From Ochrobactrum sp. Marseille-Q0166 (lineage in GTDB: Bacteria; Pseudomonadota; Alphaproteobacteria; Rhizobiales; Rhizobiaceae), in assembly GCF_014397025.1 (NCBI RefSeq), contig NZ_JACJUO010000001.1, positions 186,001-250,000 of the forward strand: a stretch of 64,000 bases of DNA, written 5' to 3'. Position numbers and translations under genes: made by a program. Shown here piece after piece: positions 11,301-17,414 of this stretch; position 1 is the first letter of the stretch, and every line of letters begins with the position of its first letter. The notes beneath the pieces were generated by a model, which did no database searches, was not told the DNA's origin, and saw nothing but the letters and a program-made list of their open reading frames with translations.

Positions 11301-12988
11301 CGGAAATTACGCGCTGCAAAGCCCTGCGTACTACGGACAATCCCGCCGCTCAGCTTCACATCACCATCAAGGATATTATCTACCGCTTCTGTGCCGGTGC
11401 GCATGTTCTGCGCATCGCCATCAAGATTAAGGTCGAATGCGCCACTGATCGGTTTAACGGTACCCGATGCCTTGACATCAATGCTGCCTGCGAGATCACG
11501 GCCGGCGAGTGCCGCATAGGGCGCCAGGCTTGCAATCTTCGCTGCAATATCGCCGTTGAACGCGAATTCATCGATCTTGCCGTTAAGTTCCAGACTGAGG
11601 CCATTGCCCTCAATTGCAGCCTTTGCAAGATCGACAGCAGTGCCAGCCCGCCAGCCACCGGAAATTGCCAGATCAATTTTATCGCCCAACGCTTCCGCAA
11701 CTTTCGCATCGGTCGCATCGATGCCGCTGACGCCGCCATTCACGTTGAAAGTGACGCGGCGGTTCGAAGCGTCATTTAGATTTTCTGCTACACCGCCCAT
11801 ATCAACCACGATATTGGAAGCAGAAACGGTAGCATTCTTGAAGCCTTCAACAGCAAGCTTGCCGGTCCAGTCATTGGTCGGGCGATCGCCATAGGAAATC
11901 TGCAAGGTTGCGTTGTTGATCGATGTTTCACCGCCTTTTACTGGCAAAAGCACCTGGCCCTTGCTGTCATCGCGAATATTCGCATCAACGCGCAGCTTGT
12001 TCAGAAAGCCATCACTACCGGACTCAGCTGAGGCTTTGACGTTCAGTGCAGCACTGTTAAGTGCCAGATCATCAAGACGGAAGCCGCCACCATCTTTGAG
12101 TAAGCCATTTGCAACGAGTGCAGTCTCCGCTCCAAAGAAGTCGCGGAATGCCGGTGGTACCAGAACGGCGATAGGCCCATTGATCTGCGTCGCAAATATG
12201 CGGCCATCAGCCCGACGTACCAGCGTGAAGCCACCGGTGAGTGTGCGGCGGCCATTTGTATCAAGCGCCAAATCGATCTTAAGGTCATCCAGCGTGCCCT
12301 TGCCGGTCAAAGTCAGATCAACCGGCGGACGACCATCGATATTAAGCACGTTGGCAACAATACCGTTGGCCGGTTCAGTCACTTTCAAATCAAGATCGAG
12401 CTTCTGATCAGCATTGGCATAGGCTGCGCGCAAAGCAAAATTGCCCCCCGGCCCATCAAGGCGCTTAATGTCAAAAGCAGAGGTAAGTGACCCATCGGCG
12501 AGCGACAGATTTCCGTTCAACGATACTTCCGACTGGAGCCCAAAAATATCCTGACCAAATTTCAGGCGCGCCACATCAAGGCTATCGATATTGATTGAAA
12601 GCGGCAGTTCGGGCAGGCTGAAACTTGTTGCTTCAGGGGATGGCAGACTGTTATCCGGCAATGGCTTGCGGATTAGGTCAATACGCTCAGCAACGAGTGA
12701 CTGAATACTCAGGCGACCCGTAAACAGCGCTGTCCTGCTCCAGTTAAGTTTCGCATTTTCAATGCGCAGCCACACGCCTTCACGGTCGGCAATGGTGATC
12801 TGGGCAACACTTGCCTCAGACGACAAAAGCCCGCTCAAGCCAGAAAACTGGATGCGGCGGTTGGGCGCGGAAAGTTTGCTTTCCACGAAGGAGATAAAAT
12901 ACGACTTTTCCTCTTCCTGCTGCTGCTCCTGAGCAACGACAGGCACTGCGAAAAGGATAAAGGCGAGAAGTGCGAGAAATCTGGTCAA
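8351..12988 (-). CDS. tamB: TamB-like translocation/assembly module protein (DUF490)
   Basis: A very large protein of 1545 residues with a signal peptide or N-terminal anchor (MTRFLALLAFILFAVPVVAQ). Most of the chain is a long repetitive beta-rich region of alternating short strands (LDL, VNADITLDANG, GTARVTG repeated), typical of AsmA/TamB proteins that form a hydrophobic groove across the periplasm. The C-terminal 350 residues carry the conserved DUF490/TamB domain (LNPQINFVARSEGDNITAIV, PELPQDEVLAQLIFKRS, FYEKDY end). TamB works with the outer-membrane protein TamA in outer-membrane protein assembly and phospholipid transport. It overlaps tamA by four bases (ATGA), so translation is coupled. 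The motif GTARVTG recurs several times, showing internal duplication. Confidence 0.94.
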   Translation of the reverse strand: MTRFLALLAFILFAVPVVAQEQQQEEEKSYFISFVESKLSAPNRRIQFSGLSGLLSSEASVAQITIADREGVWLRIENAKLNWSRTALFTGRLSIQSLVAERIDLIRKPLPDNSLPSPEATSFSLPELPLSINIDSLDVARLKFGQDIFGLQSEVSLNGNLSLADGSLTSAFDIKRLDGPGGNFALRAAYANADQKLDLDLKVTEPANGIVANVLNIDGRPPVDLTLTGKGTLDDLKIDLALDTNGRRTLTGGFTLVRRADGRIFATQINGPIAVLVPPAFRDFFGAETALVANGLLKDGGGFRLDDLALNSAALNVKASAESGSDGFLNKLRVDANIRDDSKGQVLLPVKGGETSINNATLQISYGDRPTNDWTGKLAVEGFKNATVSASNIVVDMGGVAENLNDASNRRVTFNVNGGVSGIDATDAKVAEALGDKIDLAISGGWRAGTAVDLAKAAIEGNGLSLELNGKIDEFAFNGDIAAKIASLAPYAALAGRDLAGSIDVKASGTVKPISGAFDLNLDGDAQNMRTGTEAVDNILDGDVKLSGGIVRSTQGFAARNFRIGNELSEITANGSFASDKADFDFGVMLSDLRLLSDKASGRMTIKGSARGDDKLIALALRADAPQGTLADRKLTEGVIDFNALLDGNATTGASLSGKLAGNAFLNGQKIDLGTVIDIVNDEKRLTDLVFNAGGAHLSGNVSQNSKGLFAGQLKVDAPDISTAAALFLANATGAVNADITLDANGERQNATVNAKANGLKINDNHIKSADIALSAQDLLGVPVVDGTASARDILVGTFGIDNFDAKANATGTKTDFTASTKLKIGTSANASGSLEPKDGGFELALTSADVKQGSLAATLAAPANIAMKGSNISFGDVIVNTGDGQVKVNGIVGEKLDLSVALSNLPLALANTFKPELGLGGLVNGTARVTGTKDNPNAAFDIVARGVTAAELKKQGIAPLDAEAKGSSDNNRLNIDAHVTGGASNGNGIDVTAKGGVPLGKGDLAVDVNLANLPLTLLNGAAKGQDLAGNVTGTARVTGPLTNPAAQFNLRGTGLAAKPLRENGLVPISLQAAGNYAAKAVDISSLTLEGPQGLNVTANGKVPFSGQGLGVNVSGSVPLALANRFLADRGSQASGTLSVTASVSGGFDKPQLRGMFSTAGAQFVDPETNLRLNNINVMGAMEGETITLRQVNAALGGGGSVSATGTISTNATANFPANIDIKLNNARYADGKLVVATVNGGISITGPLMRDPLIAGRIDVERAEITVPENLGGGATYVPVRHINTPKNVQITLDRAKVETRKSKVPVPTSRPSVPRLDVLVNAPNQIFVRGRGLDTELGGRVRLTGPVTNIQPVGSFDLIRGRISILGQRITFDEGSVTLVGDLNPQINFVARSEGDNITAIVTVTGTVDNLNIVFSSSPELPQDEVLAQLIFKRSIGELSAFQIAQLAAAAAELAGGSNNSLMSKLRQGTGLDDIDVVTDSKGQTAVRAGRYIRDNIYLGVEAGSAGATKGTVNLDISRNLKIKGAVGSDGDSSAGIFYEKDY

Positions 12989-14946
12989 AACGCCTGTCCT
13001 ATGCCCACGTAGAATGCATAGCTCGGATCGCCCGAGCGGCGGTTAAGTGGAAGAGCAACGTCAAAGCGGATCGGCCCAAGCCCTGTCAGGTAGCGCAGAC
13101 CAAGACCGGCACCAACACGCATTTCTTCCGAAAAGTCTGGATAGGATTGTTCGCCGACATAGCCTGCATCGACAAAGCCTACGACACCTATGGAATCGGT
13201 TACGCGCGTGCGCACTTCCCCCGAGGTCTCCACCAGTGAACGCCCGCCAATCGTTTCGCCGGTCGATGTTTCGACACCAATGCTACGATAGGAATAACCG
13301 CGAATGGAGCCGCCACCACCTGCGAGGAACAACTGGTTGGGCGGCAAGTCTGCAATGTCAGCACCGACAACGGAACCCAATTTCACGCGGCCTGCGAGCA
13401 CAACCCGGTCTGTCGAACCAAAGCCGTAATAAGCTCTGCCCTCAGCAGTGAAGCGCGTCGCAAAATTACCGCGCTGGAACTCGTAGAAGGGCTGTATATT
13501 GGCTTCGGCATAAAGGCCGGAAGTTGGATCGGGCTTGTTGTTACGGCCATCATAGAGAAGATTGCCTTCCAGCCCACCGACCGTGAACTCCCGCTTGCCG
13601 AAATAATCATCATCGAAGCGACCATGGCTGGTCTTTGCGTAGAGCGCACCAGAAAGCTCGTCGCTAAAAATCTGCGTGAAGCCTGTTTTCGCATTGATCG
13701 ATGTTTCGGTATAAGCGTCAAGGACCTCCCGCTTAGCATCAAGTGCAGCCACAAAATCCGTATCCGGCGTATAAATACCCGGTTTCGCGAAGCTCGTTCC
13801 GAGCGTGTAGGTGAAATTTTTCGGGTCGAACGAATTGTCCTGTGAACCGCCAACACCACTGACCTTGGCATCGAAGCGCAGTCGCTCACCACGGCCAAAC
13901 AGGTTGCGATGCATCCAGTAACCGGTAACACCAAAGCCATCAAGCGTCGAATATTCCGCACCAAAGCCAAAGCGGCGCGGCTTACGCTCCTGGACATTGA
14001 GTGTCATTGGCAGACTCCCATCCGGCTCGATCTTATCAGCTTCTTCAAAATTCATCGCACGGAAGACTTCCATCCGGCCGAGGCGCTTCTTCGCATCTTC
14101 AATGTCTTTGGGACTATATTGTTCGCCCGGTTTCAGTCCAGTCATCCACGCGACAAATTGTGGATCCATGCGCGCAGTACCCACGACACTCACTGGCCCG
14201 TAATGCGCCTTGCGGCCCGGATCGAGCGAAATATCTGCGGCAACAGTATCCCCGTCGTGATCCGCAACAATGTCCTCGGCGGTGATTTTCGCTTTCGCAT
14301 AGCCCTGCTGGCGCCATGCTTCTACGGCCAGACGCTCGGCTCTCAGAATAGTGGTTGAGCGGGCAAGCTGACCGGGTGCGAAGCCAGCCTCTTCAGGTGT
14401 CTGAATCTTGTTGCGCTTATCAGTCGAAGGCGGCGCGATATTTGAAATGGCTGTTCGTGAGAACAAAAACTTCGGACCGGGATCGACAGAAATATCGATC
14501 TTTGCATTGTTGGGAATGTCGGTATCGGCAGGAATATCGGCTGCTTCACGCCCATTCACTTTGATGGAAATCGTGCCACCGTAGCGGCCTTCACCATAAA
14601 GTGCTGCCAGAATACGCCGATAATCGCCACGCGCTTTGGCCAAAAGGCCTGCTGAGCCTGAGGCTGGCGTTTGCTCATCAGTGACGAGCCCGGAAGCAGC
14701 ATCAATCACCGGCTTCAAGTCGGCATCACTGCCGTCCGCATTTTTGCGGGCGCCGGAAGTTGTAACTTCAACAGTATAACTCTTTGGATCGATAATATCG
14801 GGATCGGCTTCTTTCTTCTCACCCCAAAGGTGAATGCCGAAAATCTCGAAAGCCATAGCAGGAGAAACAGTCATAGAAGCAAACTGCACAGCAAGTGCGA
14901 GTGCTATAAGACCTCTTCCCTGTATCGTCCTGTTACTCAAAGTCAT
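12985..14946 (-). CDS. tamA: TamA/BamA-family outer-membrane protein
   Basis: A 653-residue Omp85-superfamily protein. A signal peptide (MTLSNRTIQGRGLIALALAVQFASMTVSPAMA) is followed by POTRA-type domains (GPKFLFSRTAI, GRKAHYGPVSVVG segments) and, from about residue 330, a 16-strand Bac_surface_Ag barrel. The barrel includes FLAGGGGSIRGYSYRS (the conserved RGY/F loop motif) and a C-terminal aromatic residue (GIGQAF) as needed for outer-membrane insertion. It partners TamB, whose gene overlaps by four bases. I prefer the ATG at 14946 because it begins a clean signal peptide; an in-frame TTG at 15006 would add twenty residues. The start is therefore uncertain. Confidence 0.93.
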   Translation of the reverse strand: MTLSNRTIQGRGLIALALAVQFASMTVSPAMAFEIFGIHLWGEKKEADPDIIDPKSYTVEVTTSGARKNADGSDADLKPVIDAASGLVTDEQTPASGSAGLLAKARGDYRRILAALYGEGRYGGTISIKVNGREAADIPADTDIPNNAKIDISVDPGPKFLFSRTAISNIAPPSTDKRNKIQTPEEAGFAPGQLARSTTILRAERLAVEAWRQQGYAKAKITAEDIVADHDGDTVAADISLDPGRKAHYGPVSVVGTARMDPQFVAWMTGLKPGEQYSPKDIEDAKKRLGRMEVFRAMNFEEADKIEPDGSLPMTLNVQERKPRRFGFGAEYSTLDGFGVTGYWMHRNLFGRGERLRFDAKVSGVGGSQDNSFDPKNFTYTLGTSFAKPGIYTPDTDFVAALDAKREVLDAYTETSINAKTGFTQIFSDELSGALYAKTSHGRFDDDYFGKREFTVGGLEGNLLYDGRNNKPDPTSGLYAEANIQPFYEFQRGNFATRFTAEGRAYYGFGSTDRVVLAGRVKLGSVVGADIADLPPNQLFLAGGGGSIRGYSYRSIGVETSTGETIGGRSLVETSGEVRTRVTDSIGVVGFVDAGYVGEQSYPDFSEEMRVGAGLGLRYLTGLGPIRFDVALPLNRRSGDPSYAFYVGIGQAF

Positions 14947-15231
14947 ACGCGCAACTGTCCGGTTTTCGTTAAACGGCCGCTTGAGAAGCGCCCCGCCCTC
15001 CCCCAATCCCAGGACGATTCAGGGATTACCATAGAGCAGACAGAAGGCTAAATTACAACCCAAGAGCCATTCGACTATCAGAATACAGCTGTCACAATGC
15101 CTTTTTTGGTAGCGTAGCCGCCCTAACTGCGCAGGATTGGCACGTAGACAAAAGCAATTGGGTCTGCATCCGATTCTGATTGTCAATCATCCCCTATTTT
15201 GAGCTGATTGAGTCAATGGAGCGTTAATTTT

Positions 15232-15345
15232 AAAAAAACAATGCGGCCCGCTGGACGGAGGAAATCCAGCAGGCCGCCAATCAGGTCATCGGGAGGGGAG
15301 AGAATGACCTGATAATTCAGTTTTCAATGAAAGAGGTTGCAAAAC
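15232..15345 (-). ncRNA. Structured small RNA with anti-Shine-Dalgarno loops, alpha-r14/CcsR-like (copy 1)
   Basis: Read on the minus strand. A perfect 9-bp hairpin (arms 15281-15289 and 15304-15312) displays the loop TCTCTCCCCTCCCG. It is followed by a GC-rich hairpin (15243-15277, stem GCGGCC..GGCCGC) with loop TTTCCTCCG and then ATTGTTTTTTT as a Rho-independent end. A weaker 5' hairpin (TGCAA..TTGCA) lies near 15338-15359. C/U-rich loops complementary to GGAGG on a series of hairpins are the hallmark of the alpha-r14 (NfeR1) and CcsR small RNA families of alphaproteobacteria. The 5' end is a guess from the usual 115-125 nt size. The 3' hairpin could instead be read as the terminator of the SH3 gene. 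Confidence 0.55.
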
Positions 15346-15372
15346 CAGACGGCGTTGCACACCACTCCGACA

Positions 15373-15996
15373 TTACCTTCCAGAGTTATACGGGCGTGTA
15401 TTTCCGATGAGACCTGAAGCGTAGGGTCCACGGGGTTGCCAGTCGGAAGACGTTGTCGGCCTTACCCCTTCGCCAATCCTTGGCGCAGGCGTGGGCAGTG
15501 GAGGTGCAACATTGGGTTCGCGATAAGGATCATATCCCGGAGCCCAACCTGGACCCGATGGAGTTCTTGGGCGAGGATTGTATCTAGGCCACCAATTCGT
15601 ACGCCTGTGATAATGCCATCGCGGTATCCAGTACGGATTAGGATCTTCGTTCCATTGTTCCGCTAAGCCGCCAGCAATAATGACAGTTGTAGAAGATCTG
15701 GGATAGACTGGGCCTCGCGTAGAACCACGGAAATTTAGCAAACGAGATGCAACCCAGCCAATATTGCGACCCACCCTGATCTGACACCAGGTACCGCGGC
15801 ATGGGCCAGCATCGACTCTAATCCCAGCCGGCAACGTGGCTAAACGCATATAATTAACACCCGGCCCACTGCGAACATTGACGTTAGAGGTAACAATCGC
15901 CGGTGCAGCAAACGCGTATGTCGGCAATAAAATTGCTGACACCAAAGCGCTCGCCTTTATAAAATTGTATTTAAGAAATCCGTTAAATAATTTCAC
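15373..15996 (-). CDS. Secreted bacterial SH3-domain protein
   Basis: A 207-residue exported protein. I chose the GTG at 15996 because GGAG lies 9-10 bases upstream and it opens a normal signal peptide (VKLFNGFLKYNFIKASALVSAILLPTYAFA). Upstream in-frame ATGs at 16065 and 16032 would add AT-rich, poorly supported residues. Mature residues about 31-90 are an SH3b domain (VNVRSGPGVNYMRLATLP ... GWVASRLL), which in this family binds cell-wall peptides. The rest is Pro/Trp/Arg-rich and low complexity (PYWIPRWHYHRRTNWWPRYN). A periplasmic wall-binding role is likely; no enzymatic domain is present. It is flanked on both sides by putative anti-SD small RNAs on the same strand. Confidence 0.85.
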   Translation of the reverse strand: MKLFNGFLKYNFIKASALVSAILLPTYAFAAPAIVTSNVNVRSGPGVNYMRLATLPAGIRVDAGPCRGTWCQIRVGRNIGWVASRLLNFRGSTRGPVYPRSSTTVIIAGGLAEQWNEDPNPYWIPRWHYHRRTNWWPRYNPRPRTPSGPGWAPGYDPYREPNVAPPLPTPAPRIGEGVRPTTSSDWQPRGPYASGLIGNTRPYNSGR

Positions 15997-16233
15997 CGCT
16001 AATACTCCAAATAAAAACAAAATAATTGACATATAAAGCGATATACAATTGGCAATATACATCATAAAAAATAAAATATCAAATACACCGTAAAATTGTC
16101 AATTATCTTTAAAATATATCGTCTAATATTACTACAATTCTAACTATTATAATCGACAAGATATTTGAAGTAAAATTTTATTAAATATTTATATTAAATA
16201 AAAACTTCTCTAAACCATTAGATACTTCCAAAT
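15997..16233. other. AT-rich intergenic segment upstream of the SH3 gene
   Basis: Very AT-rich DNA with stretches such as TAAAATATCAAATACACC and ATTAAATATTTATATTAAAT. It should hold the SH3-gene promoter on the minus strand. I see no convincing gene in it. Confidence 0.5.
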
Positions 16234-16350
16234 AAAAAAAGCGCCCTGGAGGGAACCAGGGCGCCACGCGGCTTTTAAGGGGGAGAGGGAGGAAAAAGCC
16301 GCGCAACCGGGCCGTCAGACCTGGTTAGAGCGATCAGCGGACGGGAACTT
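16234..16350 (-). ncRNA. Structured small RNA with anti-Shine-Dalgarno loops, alpha-r14/CcsR-like (copy 2)
   Basis: Read on the minus strand, three hairpins follow one another. The first, arms 16305-16311 and 16320-16326, is imperfect. The second is a perfect 10-bp stem (arms 16267-16276 and 16294-16303) with the loop TCCTCCCTCTCCCCCTT. The third is a perfect 9-bp stem GCGCCCTGG..CCAGGGCGC (16241-16264) with loop TTCCCT, directly followed by TTTTTTT. This repeats the design of the element at 15232-15345 with a different sequence in the stems and the same CCTCC-type loops. The 5' end is estimated. It lies between cyoD and the SH3 gene, both on the same strand. Confidence 0.6.
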
Positions 16351-16386
16351 AGCCCGCCCTACTGAAATTCACTAAGAGAGTCTTTG

Positions 16387-16419
16387 TCTGAAAACCGTTT
16401 TACGGTTTTCGGGATCGCT
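16387..16419. repeat. Dispersed palindromic repeat (RIME-like), after cyoD
   Basis: GAAAACCGT-TTT-ACGGTTTTC followed by GGGATCGCTCTAA, starting right at the cyoD stop codon. The GAGCGATCCCGAAAACCG end matches the intergenic palindromes seen at 46727-46766 and in the liuD 3' end. Confidence 0.6.
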
Positions 16420-16785
16420 CTAAGGCAGATTACGCGCATCATCCGGCGTCATATACATCGGCATCATATTGGTATCGAGGTGATGCATGACCCAGATGGA
16501 ACCAGCAAGCACGATCGCCAGAATGATAACCGTGAAAATGAGCGCCATAATATTCCACCCATTTTCCGACTTCGGATCAAGGTGCAGGAAATAAACCAGA
16601 TGCACCACGATCTGAACGGCAGCCATACCGACAACAATTGCTGCGGTCGTCGCTGGCGTAAAGTATCCGTTCATCGCCAACATGAATGGAACGATGGTGA
16701 GAATGATCGCGAGAGCCAGACCAATCAGGTAGGACTTCAGGCTGCCATGTGCGGCTTGATCGTGTGTTTCGTGTCCAGAGCTCAT
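16420..16785 (-). CDS. cyoD: Cytochrome o ubiquinol oxidase subunit IV
   Basis: A 121-residue membrane protein with three helices (YLIGLALAIILTIVPFMLA; TAAIVVGMAAVQIVVHLVYFLHL; NIMALIFTVIILAIVLAGSIWVM) in the pattern of CyoD. A His-rich cytosolic N terminus (SSGHETHDQAAHG) precedes them. Subunit IV helps assemble the bo3-type quinol oxidase. I chose the ATG at 16785, which overlaps the cyoC stop by one base (TGATG), over an in-frame start at 16866 that would lie inside cyoC. It is the last gene of cyoABCD; the gene for heme O synthase (cyoE) is not next to it. Confidence 0.93.
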   Translation of the reverse strand: MSSGHETHDQAAHGSLKSYLIGLALAIILTIVPFMLAMNGYFTPATTAAIVVGMAAVQIVVHLVYFLHLDPKSENGWNIMALIFTVIILAIVLAGSIWVMHHLDTNMMPMYMTPDDARNLP

Positions 16786-17414
16786 CACAATACACCCAGC
16801 AGATAGACAAGGGTAAAGACGCCAATCCAGATGATGTCCAGGAAGTGCCAGAAGAGGCTCAAGCACATCACGCGCGTCCGGTTCTTTTCGGTCAGGCCAT
16901 CACGCAGAAGCTGGGCGGAAAGCACCAGAATCCAAATGAGGCCAGAGGTAATATGCAGACCGTGTGTTCCAACCAGCGCAAAGAACGCCGAGAGGAATGC
17001 GCTGCGGCTTGGCCCTGCACCTTCAGCGATCAGATGATTGAATTCATAGATTTCCATCGCGAGGAACGCGAAGCCGAGCAGAAAAGTCACGGCCAACCAG
17101 AACAGAACACCTGCACGATTGTTCCTGAACATCGAGAGCGTCGCCAGACCATAAGTCAGCGACGACGCCAGCAGGATCATCGTTTCGGTCAAGACAAACT
17201 GTAGATCAAACAGTTCACGACCGGTCGGGCCACCTGCGAATTGATGTGCCAGAACAGCATAGGTTGCAAACAATCCCGAGAAGAGAACGCAATCGCTCAT
17301 CAGGTAGATCCAGAAGCCGACCAGTGTGGTCGACCCGGAATCATGATGGTCTTCGTGAGCTGGGTGCTCGTTGCCGCCCTTGAAAGGGCCAACTTTATAA
17401 TAAGTAGCGCTCAT
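16785..17414 (-). CDS. cyoC: Cytochrome o ubiquinol oxidase subunit III
   Basis: A 209-residue membrane protein with five predicted helices, including [23 protein letters not shown] and [18 protein letters not shown]. The conserved E/H residues of subunit III of heme-copper oxidases are present ([31 protein letters not shown]). It supports oxygen and proton channel function of the quinol oxidase. The start lies three bases after the cyoB stop codon, so the genes are tightly coupled. Confidence 0.95.

What the first reader, a model, noticed from the sequence alone, without database searches (positions are those of the whole stretch)
15232..16350. Two tandem anti-Shine-Dalgarno small RNAs bracket an SH3-domain gene
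Both copies, on the minus strand, show consecutive perfect hairpins whose loops are pyrimidine-rich with CCUCC cores (TCTCTCCCCTCCCG and TTTCCTCCG in copy 1; TCCTCCCTCTCCCCCTT and TTCCCT in copy 2), each ending in a GC-rich hairpin and U-run. Stem sequences differ completely between copies while loop class and architecture are kept, which is the pattern of selection on RNA structure. This fits the multi-copy alpha-r14 (NfeR1)/CcsR type of riboregulators, which block translation by pairing with Shine-Dalgarno sites. Placement directly before and after the wall-binding SH3 gene, one kilobase apart, is unusual and suggests co-regulation or local duplication.
Basis: partly seen in the sequence, partly recalled or inferred. 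Interest (0 to 1): 0.78.

Follow-up and report, generated by a model that had tools for sequence, protein, structure and literature searches.

The report
Two pyrimidine-loop RNAs ending neighbouring genes
Two short RNA structures with C/U-rich loops, able in principle to cover ribosome-binding sites, form the conserved tail ends of two neighbouring genes in Ochrobactrum-type bacteria; they look like new relatives of a known small-RNA class, but their release and activity are inferred, not shown.

Summary
The structures are real and conserved. Copy 1 (15232-15313, minus) and copy 2 (16233-16303, minus) are each two adjacent hairpins with C/U-rich loops. Copy 1 is found in 28 of 35 genomes of the genus, copy 2 in 33 of 35, one site each. 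In 26 aligned copy-1 orthologs 13 of 22 base pairs show double changes with pairing kept. The first loop keeps an anti-Shine-Dalgarno word in 26 of 26 (copy 1) and 23 of 23 (copy 2).

The placement reading fails. Copy 2 follows cyoD, also in genomes without the SH3 gene here. Copy 1 goes with the SH3 gene (34 of 35 genomes agree). So each is the 3' end of a different gene, not a tandem duplication around SH3. Rfam membership fails: ar14 37.4 bits against a cut-off of 58.8 for copy 1, no match for copy 2; four ar14 loci over the cut-off lie elsewhere in the genome.

Best reading: 3'UTR-derived small RNAs of the CcsR/cuckoo kind. Copy 1 is probably a divergent cuckoo RNA (exact CCUCCUCCC in 14 of 26 orthologs); copy 2 is a distinct long-pyrimidine-loop variant. 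Release and target binding are inferred; no expression data were available.

The parts
15280..15313 (-). Copy 1, hairpin 1: 10-bp stem, pyrimidine loop TCTCTCCCCTCCCG (anti-SD type)
   Evidence: Sequence; fold z -7.3 for the two hairpins; loop keeps an aSD word in 26 of 26 orthologs; covariation
15243..15277 (-). Copy 1, hairpin 2: 14-bp GC-rich stem, loop TTTCCTCCG as quoted; terminator-like
   Evidence: 8 of 12 counted pairs change on both sides in orthologs; loop aSD word kept in 14 of 26
15232..15238 (-). Copy 1 U-run
   Evidence: a run of 4 or more T after the stem in 16 of 26 orthologs (15 by the script; one more, L013, from the listing)
16310..16321 (-). Copy 2, small conserved 5' hairpin (GGTC-TGAC-GGCC), possibly the 5' boundary
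   Evidence: 93.4% of cells paired in A4, one of 4 pairs with a double change; kept but moved upstream by inserts in L026, L030 and L031
16267..16303 (-). Copy 2, hairpin 1: 10-bp stem, 17-nt loop TCCTCCCTCTCCCCCTT
   Evidence: loop 97% pyrimidine and 80% identical across 23 orthologs, against 36% identity in the linker upstream
16240..16265 (-). Copy 2, hairpin 2: 10-bp GC-rich intrinsic terminator
   Evidence: all cells paired in A4, 4 of 10 pairs with changes on both sides
16233..16239 (-). Copy 2 U-run (T6 then A)
15373..15996 (-). Host gene of copy 1: bacterial-SH3 protein, exported by the look of its N-terminus; likely start GTG 15996 (the ATG ORF begins at 16065)
   Evidence: Pfam SH3_3 and SH3_4; GTG with TTTGGAG upstream; the stop codon lies 59 nt before copy 1
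16420..16785 (-). cyoD, last gene of cyoABCD and host gene of copy 2
   Evidence: COX4_pro; copy 2 follows cyoD in all 33 genus genomes that have it

Best explanation
These are two separate 3'-untranslated-region RNAs. Copy 2 is the end of the cyoABCD (cytochrome bo3 quinol oxidase) message; copy 1 is the end of the message of the SH3 protein. Each has a pyrimidine-loop hairpin followed at once by a GC-rich terminator-like hairpin. Shown here: structure, synteny, one strong site per genome, covariation, loop conservation, distribution. Inferred: after transcription with its host gene, RNase E or a similar enzyme frees the two-hairpin tail as a 75-100 nt small RNA, and its C/U loops pair with GGAGG-type ribosome-binding sites of other mRNAs and block translation, as CcsR and NfeR1 do. 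The terminator hairpin also ends and protects the host mRNA. Copy 1 is most likely a divergent relative of the cuckoo/CcsR group; copy 2 is a distinct long-pyrimidine-loop variant of the same kind.
For: Copy 1 strongly in 26 of 35 genus genomes plus two weak but positionally right matches (28 of 35), copy 2 strongly in 33 of 35, one strong site each. Covariation: copy 1 has 13 of 22 pairs with double changes, 0 of 500 shuffles as many; copy 2 has 6 of 23, 2 of 500. Loop 1 is 90% (copy 1) and 97% (copy 2) pyrimidine, against 54% and 50% in the upstream linkers; aSD word in 26 of 26 and 23 of 23. Exact CCUCCUCCC in 14 of 26 copy-1 orthologs, in 13 of them wholly inside loop 1. Copy 1 lies within 60 nt of the in-frame SH3 stop in 20 of 26 loci, copy 2 within 19-195 nt of the cyoD stop in 22 of 22. 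Cross-recognition by the copy-1 model: 37.1 bits at copy 2 in the window and 22 copy-2 sites in named relatives, with no hit in 53 cyoD loci from outside the group. Precedents: CcsR1-4 cut by RNase E from the ccaF1 3'UTR and PcrX from the puf operon 3'UTR (passages of PMC8625941); anti-SD silencing by NfeR1 (passages of PMC10746234).
Against: No transcript, processing or target data were available. Copy 1's second loop has lost its aSD word in 12 of 26 orthologs and the run of 4 or more T is missing in 10 of 26, so not every part behaves like a standard sRNA with a terminator. Copy 2 never carries CCUCCUCCC (0 of 23), and one of five covariation measures for copy 2 is not above shuffles (92 of 500). 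G010 lacks copy 2 and G028 keeps only its terminator. In 6 of 26 loci copy 1 lies 128-690 nt after the stop that was found (frame breaks lengthen some of these). No dedicated target was found; the tamA lead failed its coevolution test twice.
Confidence: 0.58

Rival explanations
1. They act only in cis: 3' ends of the cyo and SH3 mRNAs whose hairpins terminate transcription and protect the mRNA from exonucleases. The pyrimidine loops serve a protein (for example an RNA chaperone, or Rho through its YC preference, which is recalled) or only help the fold.
For: 3'-end position behind a gene; no promoter found; GC-rich second hairpins with U-runs in the window; copy 1's second loop loses the aSD word in 12 of 26 while the hairpin stays.
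Against: An ordinary terminator needs no first hairpin and no pyrimidine loop. Of 111 weak copy-2-model hits in the genus I read 10; none of the 10 has an aSD-loop hairpin of 6 or more pairs. Loop composition is kept over the 23 aligned copy-2 and 26 copy-1 sequences. The loops share aSD words with the ar14 RNAs of the same genome.
Confidence: 0.3
2. Independent small-RNA genes with their own promoters, of the alpha-r14 (NfeR1) family.
For: Copy 1 aligns to all of ar14 at 37.4 bits, E 4.8e-5; anti-SD loops. The promoter test was weak: true ar14 loci in this genome score 3-6 mismatches in it.
Against: Below the ar14 cut-off of 58.8 bits, and no match for copy 2. The first of three ar14 hairpins is not conserved in copy-1 orthologs. 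No CTTAGAC-N17-CTATAT-like promoter with fewer than 4 mismatches upstream. Copy 1 is absent where the SH3 gene is absent from the locus, in 7 of 8 such genomes.
Confidence: 0.08
3. Local duplication: one RNA was copied to the other side of the SH3 gene.
For: Same two-hairpin design, 0.93 kb apart; each model recognises the other copy (37.1 and 26.6 bits).
Against: The stem sequences differ. Ranges differ: copy 2 without copy 1 in 7 of 35 genomes, copy 1 without copy 2 in two. Copy 2 also occurs in a sister genus behind cyoD (G111, 66.5 bits).
Confidence: 0.04

Closest known systems
CcsR1-4 / RS0680a of Rhodobacter sphaeroides (Rfam RF02791 CcsR1)
   Same: Two stem-loops with anti-SD motifs (RS0680a, PMC3927594 section 2.7), in a gene's 3'UTR (CcsR1-4, PMC8625941 passages). 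That RS0680a and CcsR are the same RNAs is recalled.
   Different: Host gene is the DUF1127 gene ccaF1, with four CcsR RNAs in one transcript (passages of PMC10253847); here cyoABCD and an SH3 gene, one each. Below the Rfam cut-off: best 28.7 against 65.3 bits, in one ortholog.
alpha-r14 / NfeR1 (Rfam RF02344 ar14)
   Same: Adjacent hairpins with unpaired anti-SD loops; copy 1 aligns at 37.4 bits
   Different: ar14 has three hairpins each with CCUCCUCCC and its own promoter, six copies in S. meliloti (passages of PMC10746234 and PMC7143759). Here two conserved hairpins, no promoter found; four ar14 loci over the cut-off lie elsewhere in this genome.
Cuckoo RNA family (Reinkensmeier and Giegerich 2015; paper not held, definition recalled: 2-4 adjacent hairpins with CCUCCUCCC loops and variable stems)
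   Same: Copy 1: two adjacent hairpins, motif CCUCCUCCC in 14 of 26 orthologs
   Different: The window's own copy 1 lacks the exact motif; copy 2 lacks it in 23 of 23 and has a 17-21 nt pyrimidine loop.
PcrX, 3'UTR of the pufBALMX operon of R. sphaeroides
   Same: Precedent for an RNase E-cut small RNA from the end of a bioenergetic operon (PMC8625941 passage), as proposed for copy 2 behind cyoABCD
   Different: No sequence comparison was made; the passage seen says that PcrX targets pufX and does not mention anti-SD loops.

Membership tests
alpha-r14 / NfeR1 (RF02344) | Covariance-model score at or above the gathering score of 58.8 | tested here: not met
   Copy 1 37.4 bits; copy 2 no match up to E 10. 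Of 18 genus SH3 loci, seven have an ar14 match at copy 1 with E up to 0.05, best 37.8 bits.
alpha-r14 / NfeR1 (RF02344) | Three hairpins, each with CCUCCUCCC unpaired | tested here: not met
   Two conserved hairpins in each copy (copy 2 has a further small 5' hairpin without the motif); exact 9-mer absent from both window copies, present in 14 of 26 copy-1 and 0 of 23 copy-2 orthologs.
alpha-r14 / NfeR1 (RF02344) | Own sigma-70 promoter CTTAGAC-N17-CTATAT with conserved upstream block | tested here: inconclusive
   At least 4 mismatches of 13 (spacers 16-18) upstream of both copies and in all 23 + 23 loci examined, but the four ar14 loci of this genome themselves score 3-6 mismatches, so the test discriminates poorly. 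The upstream block was not tested.
CcsR (RF02791) | Score at or above the gathering score of 65.3 | tested here: not met
   No CcsR1 match for either window copy; one ortholog of 18 loci 28.7 bits; own genome best 28.3 bits, at an ar14 locus.
CcsR (RF02791) | Located in the 3'UTR of a protein gene and co-transcribed with it | tested here: inconclusive
   Position fits for both copies, but the host genes are not DUF1127 genes and co-transcription was not testable.
CcsR (RF02791) | RNase E-dependent release | not testable with these tools
   Needs RNA-end data.
Cuckoo RNA (definition recalled; two-, three- and four-hairpin forms in PMC3927594 section 2.7) | 2-4 adjacent hairpins | tested here: met
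   Both copies: two adjacent hairpins with covariation.
Cuckoo RNA (definition recalled; two-, three- and four-hairpin forms in PMC3927594 section 2.7) | CCUCCUCCC in each loop | tested here: not met
   Copy 1: in 14 of 26 orthologs, never in both loops as cut, and not in the window itself. Copy 2: 0 of 23. Copy 1 is called cuckoo-like, not filed as a member.
Ordinary intrinsic terminator | Single GC-rich hairpin with U-run explains the whole conserved element | tested here: not met
   A second, upstream pyrimidine-loop hairpin is conserved; none of 10 ordinary terminators read as controls (of 111 weak hits) has one.

The most novel reading that the evidence does not exclude
The end of the cyoABCD message is itself a regulator: each time the quinol oxidase is transcribed, an anti-Shine-Dalgarno RNA with a 17-nt pyrimidine loop is released and damps translation of other mRNAs. 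Beside it, the SH3 gene's 3' RNA pairs with the conserved G-rich tract at the start of the next gene's (tamA) message. In the window that site gives the strongest predicted pairing of 47 gene starts with both first loops (-21.6 and -25.5 kcal/mol), which would link respiration, cell wall and outer-membrane assembly. Against the tamA part: other sites in the window pair better, cognate loop-leader pairs are no better than shuffled ones (P 0.86; P 0.97 with leaders centred on the tract), and the G tract does not form a stable hairpin.
Probability: 0.14. Interest if true: 0.62.

Novelty: new member of a known kind. Interest (0 to 1): 0.42.

Why it matters
If released as small RNAs, they would tie a broad translational brake directly to expression of a respiratory oxidase and of an envelope protein, without a separate promoter. 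They add two covariation-supported RNA elements, conserved through most of a genus, that reached no Rfam gathering score in the loci scanned. They also suggest that anti-SD 'cuckoo'-type loops occur as gene tails beside the free-standing multi-copy genes, so screens that look only for intergenic sRNA genes can miss them.

Tried and rejected
Rejected: local duplication (different ranges and positions); ar14 or CcsR membership; chance (and conservation); ncS54 (sub-threshold at copy 2 of 8 of the 18 genus loci, 27.6-30.5 bits), sX13, BjrC68, suhB, ctRNA and similar sub-threshold Rfam matches. The BASRCI408 match looked at closely (L024) comes from a repeat beside copy 2; the others were not looked at.

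Led nowhere: tamA leader as a dedicated target (in one search the leader cut for L010 missed the tract because of an insert, so the test was repeated with all 26 loci). Search for further copies of the copy-2 design: the 10 weak genus hits read (of 111) are plain terminators; of the 5 weak family hits outside the genus, three (L126, L128, L129) show no pyrimidine run at the match and two (L125, L127) do.

Literature: 'cyoD, sRNA, Brucella' (2 papers) and 'CcsR, Brucella' (3 papers) gave nothing relevant by listing. 'Brucella, small RNA, anti-Shine-Dalgarno, sRNA' (8 papers), 'Brucella, sRNA, RNA-seq, intergenic, Northern blot' (20 of 34 listed) and 'Ochrobactrum, small RNA, sRNA' (12 of 21 listed): no title names this locus. 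The main texts of PMC9751625, PMC12772402 and PMC4845025 hold none of the terms tried; the last reports 1321 sRNAs (abstract in the listing), and its supplementary lists could not be opened here, so an earlier detection of either RNA in a relative is not excluded. The cuckoo-RNA paper and the CcaF1 paper of 2021 are not held.

Not done: dating the losses on a tree; screening whole genomes for other 3'UTR pyrimidine-loop tails.
Full report
WHAT IS THERE. On the minus strand, between cyoD (ends at 16420) and tamA (12985-15006), lie copy 2, an SH3 protein gene and copy 1, in the order of transcription. Pfam gives COX4_pro and COX3 for cyoD and cyoC, SH3_3/SH3_4 for the SH3 protein, Omp85 and POTRA for tamA. 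These genes and both RNAs point the same way. Copy 1 is hairpin 15313-15280, two bases, hairpin 15277-15243, then ATTG and T7. Copy 2 is hairpin 16303-16267, one base, hairpin 16265-16240, then T6. Both fold far better than shuffled sequence (z -7.3 and -5.7, 0 of 200 shuffles as good). Rfam at its curated thresholds finds neither. A consensus scan finds nine sigma-70-like sites in 14900-16900 (3.0 expected); the four on the minus strand lie at 16054-16174, in the AT-rich leader of the SH3 gene, which fits a promoter of that gene's own between the two RNAs (consensus matches only).

THE ORGANISM. The window's genome (G000, 4.44 Mb, 3 contigs) belongs to a genus for which the database holds 35 genomes. 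Named relatives with the nearest cyoD are Brucella (former Ochrobactrum, as recalled), Ochrobactrum and Falsochrobactrum species (27 loci, L149-L175, two of them recorded only as Rhizobiales bacterium and one as a Hyphomicrobiales MAG).

CONSERVATION. From the SH3-anchored loci I aligned copy 1 from 26 genomes (A3; G002 and G004, found later, are not in it) and copy 2 from 23 (A4: 22 of the 33 of this genus, one of a sister genus). In A3, 96.9% of cells form standard pairs and 13 of 22 pairs show a change on both sides with the pair kept (shuffles: mean 3.6; 0 of 500 reach 13; slid controls at most 3). In A4, 98.8% of cells pair and 6 of 23 pairs have double changes (2 of 500 shuffles reach 6; slid controls at most 2; one measure, further pair types, is not above shuffles, 92 of 500). 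The structures came from the consensus of the same alignments and the rows include close relatives, so these counts lean towards the structure and are not independent events. An earlier count with a mistyped structure is void.

LOOPS. Copy 1 loop 1 is 90% pyrimidine over 26 sequences and contains CCUCC, CUCCC or CUCCU in 26 of 26; loop 2 does so in 14 of 26. Copy 2 loop 1 is 93% pyrimidine as cut (97% for the core columns), with such a word in 23 of 23; its terminator loop has none (0 of 23). Pairwise identity: copy 2 stem 1.00, loop 0.80, linker upstream 0.36; copy 1 stem 1 0.90-0.91, loop 0.59, linker 0.31; the linkers are 50% and 54% pyrimidine. The exact cuckoo/alpha-r14 word CCUCCUCCC occurs in 14 of 26 copy-1 orthologs (13 wholly within loop 1; not in the window's own) and in 0 of 23 copy-2 orthologs.

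COPY NUMBER AND RANGE. Models built from A3 (R1) and A4 (R2) were run on the 35 genus genomes. R1: 26 genomes with E at most 4e-10; two more weak hits (G021 and G004, about 41 bits) lie at the right place, before tamA. G030's two weaker hits do not count: one coincides with an ar14 locus (C1:244872-244994) and the other was not read, while its cyoD-tamA interval (L110) holds no SH3 match and no copy 1 in the listing. That makes 28 of 35. R2: 33 of 35 with E at most 7e-16, one strong site each, plus 111 weak matches; G010 has no strong match and G028 only a 34.8-bit one, where the terminator hairpin survives without the pyrimidine hairpin (L033). Among 247 genomes of the family (stricter filters, which lose weak matches), R1 finds 3 (all this genus); R2 finds 11 at E 1e-4: 5 of this genus, one sister-genus genome at cyoD (G111, 66.5 bits) and 5 weak ones elsewhere. 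On 80 named cyoD loci, R2 finds 26 of the 27 loci of this group (not L166, Falsochrobactrum ovis) and none of the 53 others; six further weak R2 hits are copy-1 sites. R1 finds 20 copy-1 sites plus 22 copy-2 sites, again none in the 53 others. Ten of the 111 weak R2 hits inside the genus were fetched and read; none has an aSD-loop hairpin of 6 or more pairs beside its terminator.

POSITION EXPLAINS THE 'BRACKET'. In the seven genomes without copy 1 (G005, G007, G022, G023, G026, G027, G030) the fetched interval runs cyoD - copy 2 - tamA, with no SH3 match in it; five of them have a more distant SH3 relative elsewhere. In 27 of the 28 genomes with copy 1 the SH3 gene lies beside it; the exception G004 has no SH3 match at all and a copy-1 remnant before tamA, 17 kb from copy 2. 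So copy 2 travels with cyoD and copy 1 with the SH3 gene; an SH3-plus-copy-1 unit is present in or absent from the cyoD-tamA interval. Copy 1 begins 59 nt after the SH3 stop codon in the window; in 20 of 26 loci it lies within 60 nt of the in-frame stop, in the other six 128-690 nt after the stop found from the best tblastn segment, so frame breaks lengthen some of these. Copy 2 lies 19-195 nt after the cyoD stop in 22 of 22 loci measured. This is the anatomy of two 3'UTRs.

ARE THEY ALPHA-R14 OR CCSR? Copy 1 reaches 37.4 bits with ar14 (cut-off 58.8) and 28.8 with sX13 (cut-off 50); copy 2 has no ar14 match and 28.3 bits with ncS54 (cut-off 43). Of 18 genus SH3 loci given, seven have sub-threshold ar14 matches at copy 1, one a sub-threshold CcsR1 match there, and eight a sub-threshold ncS54 match at copy 2. 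The own genome has four ar14 loci over the cut-off, each with three CCUCC-type loops, and three weaker ones. That search did not list copy 1, which the direct scan had found at 37.4 bits, so its first look loses weak members. Every one of the 35 genus genomes has an ar14 match over the cut-off. The published promoter word CTTAGAC-N17-CTATAT (passage of PMC10746234) was not found with fewer than 4 mismatches upstream of either copy; the true ar14 loci score 3-6 mismatches in the same test, so it discriminates poorly. RF02791 has no match over its cut-off in the own genome.

HOW IT MOST LIKELY WORKS. [quoted passage not shown] also passages). [quoted passage not shown] NfeR1 silences ntrB through such loops (passages). 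By analogy I infer release of each two-hairpin tail and pairing of its loops with SD sequences. That step is not shown here. The main rival is a cis-only role (termination and mRNA protection). It explains the second hairpins, but not the conserved pyrimidine loop of the first.

TARGETS. Simple duplex energies put tamA first of 47 window gene starts for both first loops, because of a G-rich tract upstream of tamA that is conserved in the genus. But better sites exist elsewhere in the window; cognate loop-leader pairs are not better than shuffled pairs (23 loci: mean -21.1 against -21.5, P 0.86; 26 loci with leaders centred on the tract: -21.9 against -22.5, P 0.97); and the tract shows no stable structure of its own (z between -0.4 and +0.5 for four leaders). 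This stays a lead.

VERDICT. A correct observation of conserved RNA elements, with a partly wrong reading of their family and placement. Interest is moderate: well supported as conserved structures, plausible as regulators, of a kind already known in the Alphaproteobacteria.

Noticed in passing
window 16325-16423: Palindrome-ended repeat (TTAGAGCGATC ... GATCGCTCTAA) inserted between cyoD and copy 2; it overlaps the end of cyoD and supplies its stop codon. Repeats near these loci in relatives weakly match Rfam BASRCI408.
   Followed up: partly
window 15996: The SH3 gene probably starts at GTG 15996, with TTTGGAG upstream and a signal-peptide-like N-terminus, not at the ATG at 16065; the stretch 16000-16230 is very AT-rich and holds the sigma-70-like minus-strand sites.
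   Followed up: partly
window 14985-15010 (minus): G-rich tract upstream of tamA conserved through the genus, tending to longer G runs in genomes that carry copy 1; no stable fold.
   Followed up: yes
L005:1501-1619 (G000:C2:338925-339043): A CUCCUCCC-type-loop hairpin followed by a GC-rich hairpin directly after the stop codon of an ORF and before another ORF: perhaps a third 3'-end anti-SD element in this genome.
   Followed up: no
L006:1501-1617 (G000:C1:1127468-1127584): One-hairpin anti-SD RNA candidate (loop with CCTCCTCCC) plus a strong terminator.
   Followed up: no
L128:1980-2360 (minus), genome G186: Two three-hairpin CUCCUCC-type units in a row, about 285 nt apart: by the letters a real tandem pair of ar14-like RNAs.
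   Followed up: no
L125:1500-1600 (minus) and L127:1490-1590: The same design as copy 2 (long pyrimidine loop, then GC-rich terminator) beside other genes in two other genera, one of them a 1.4 Mb genome; judged by reading the letters.
   Followed up: partly
L033:1255-1330 (G028): Copy 2 reduced to its terminator: the pyrimidine hairpin is not recognisable while the GC-rich hairpin stays.
   Followed up: partly
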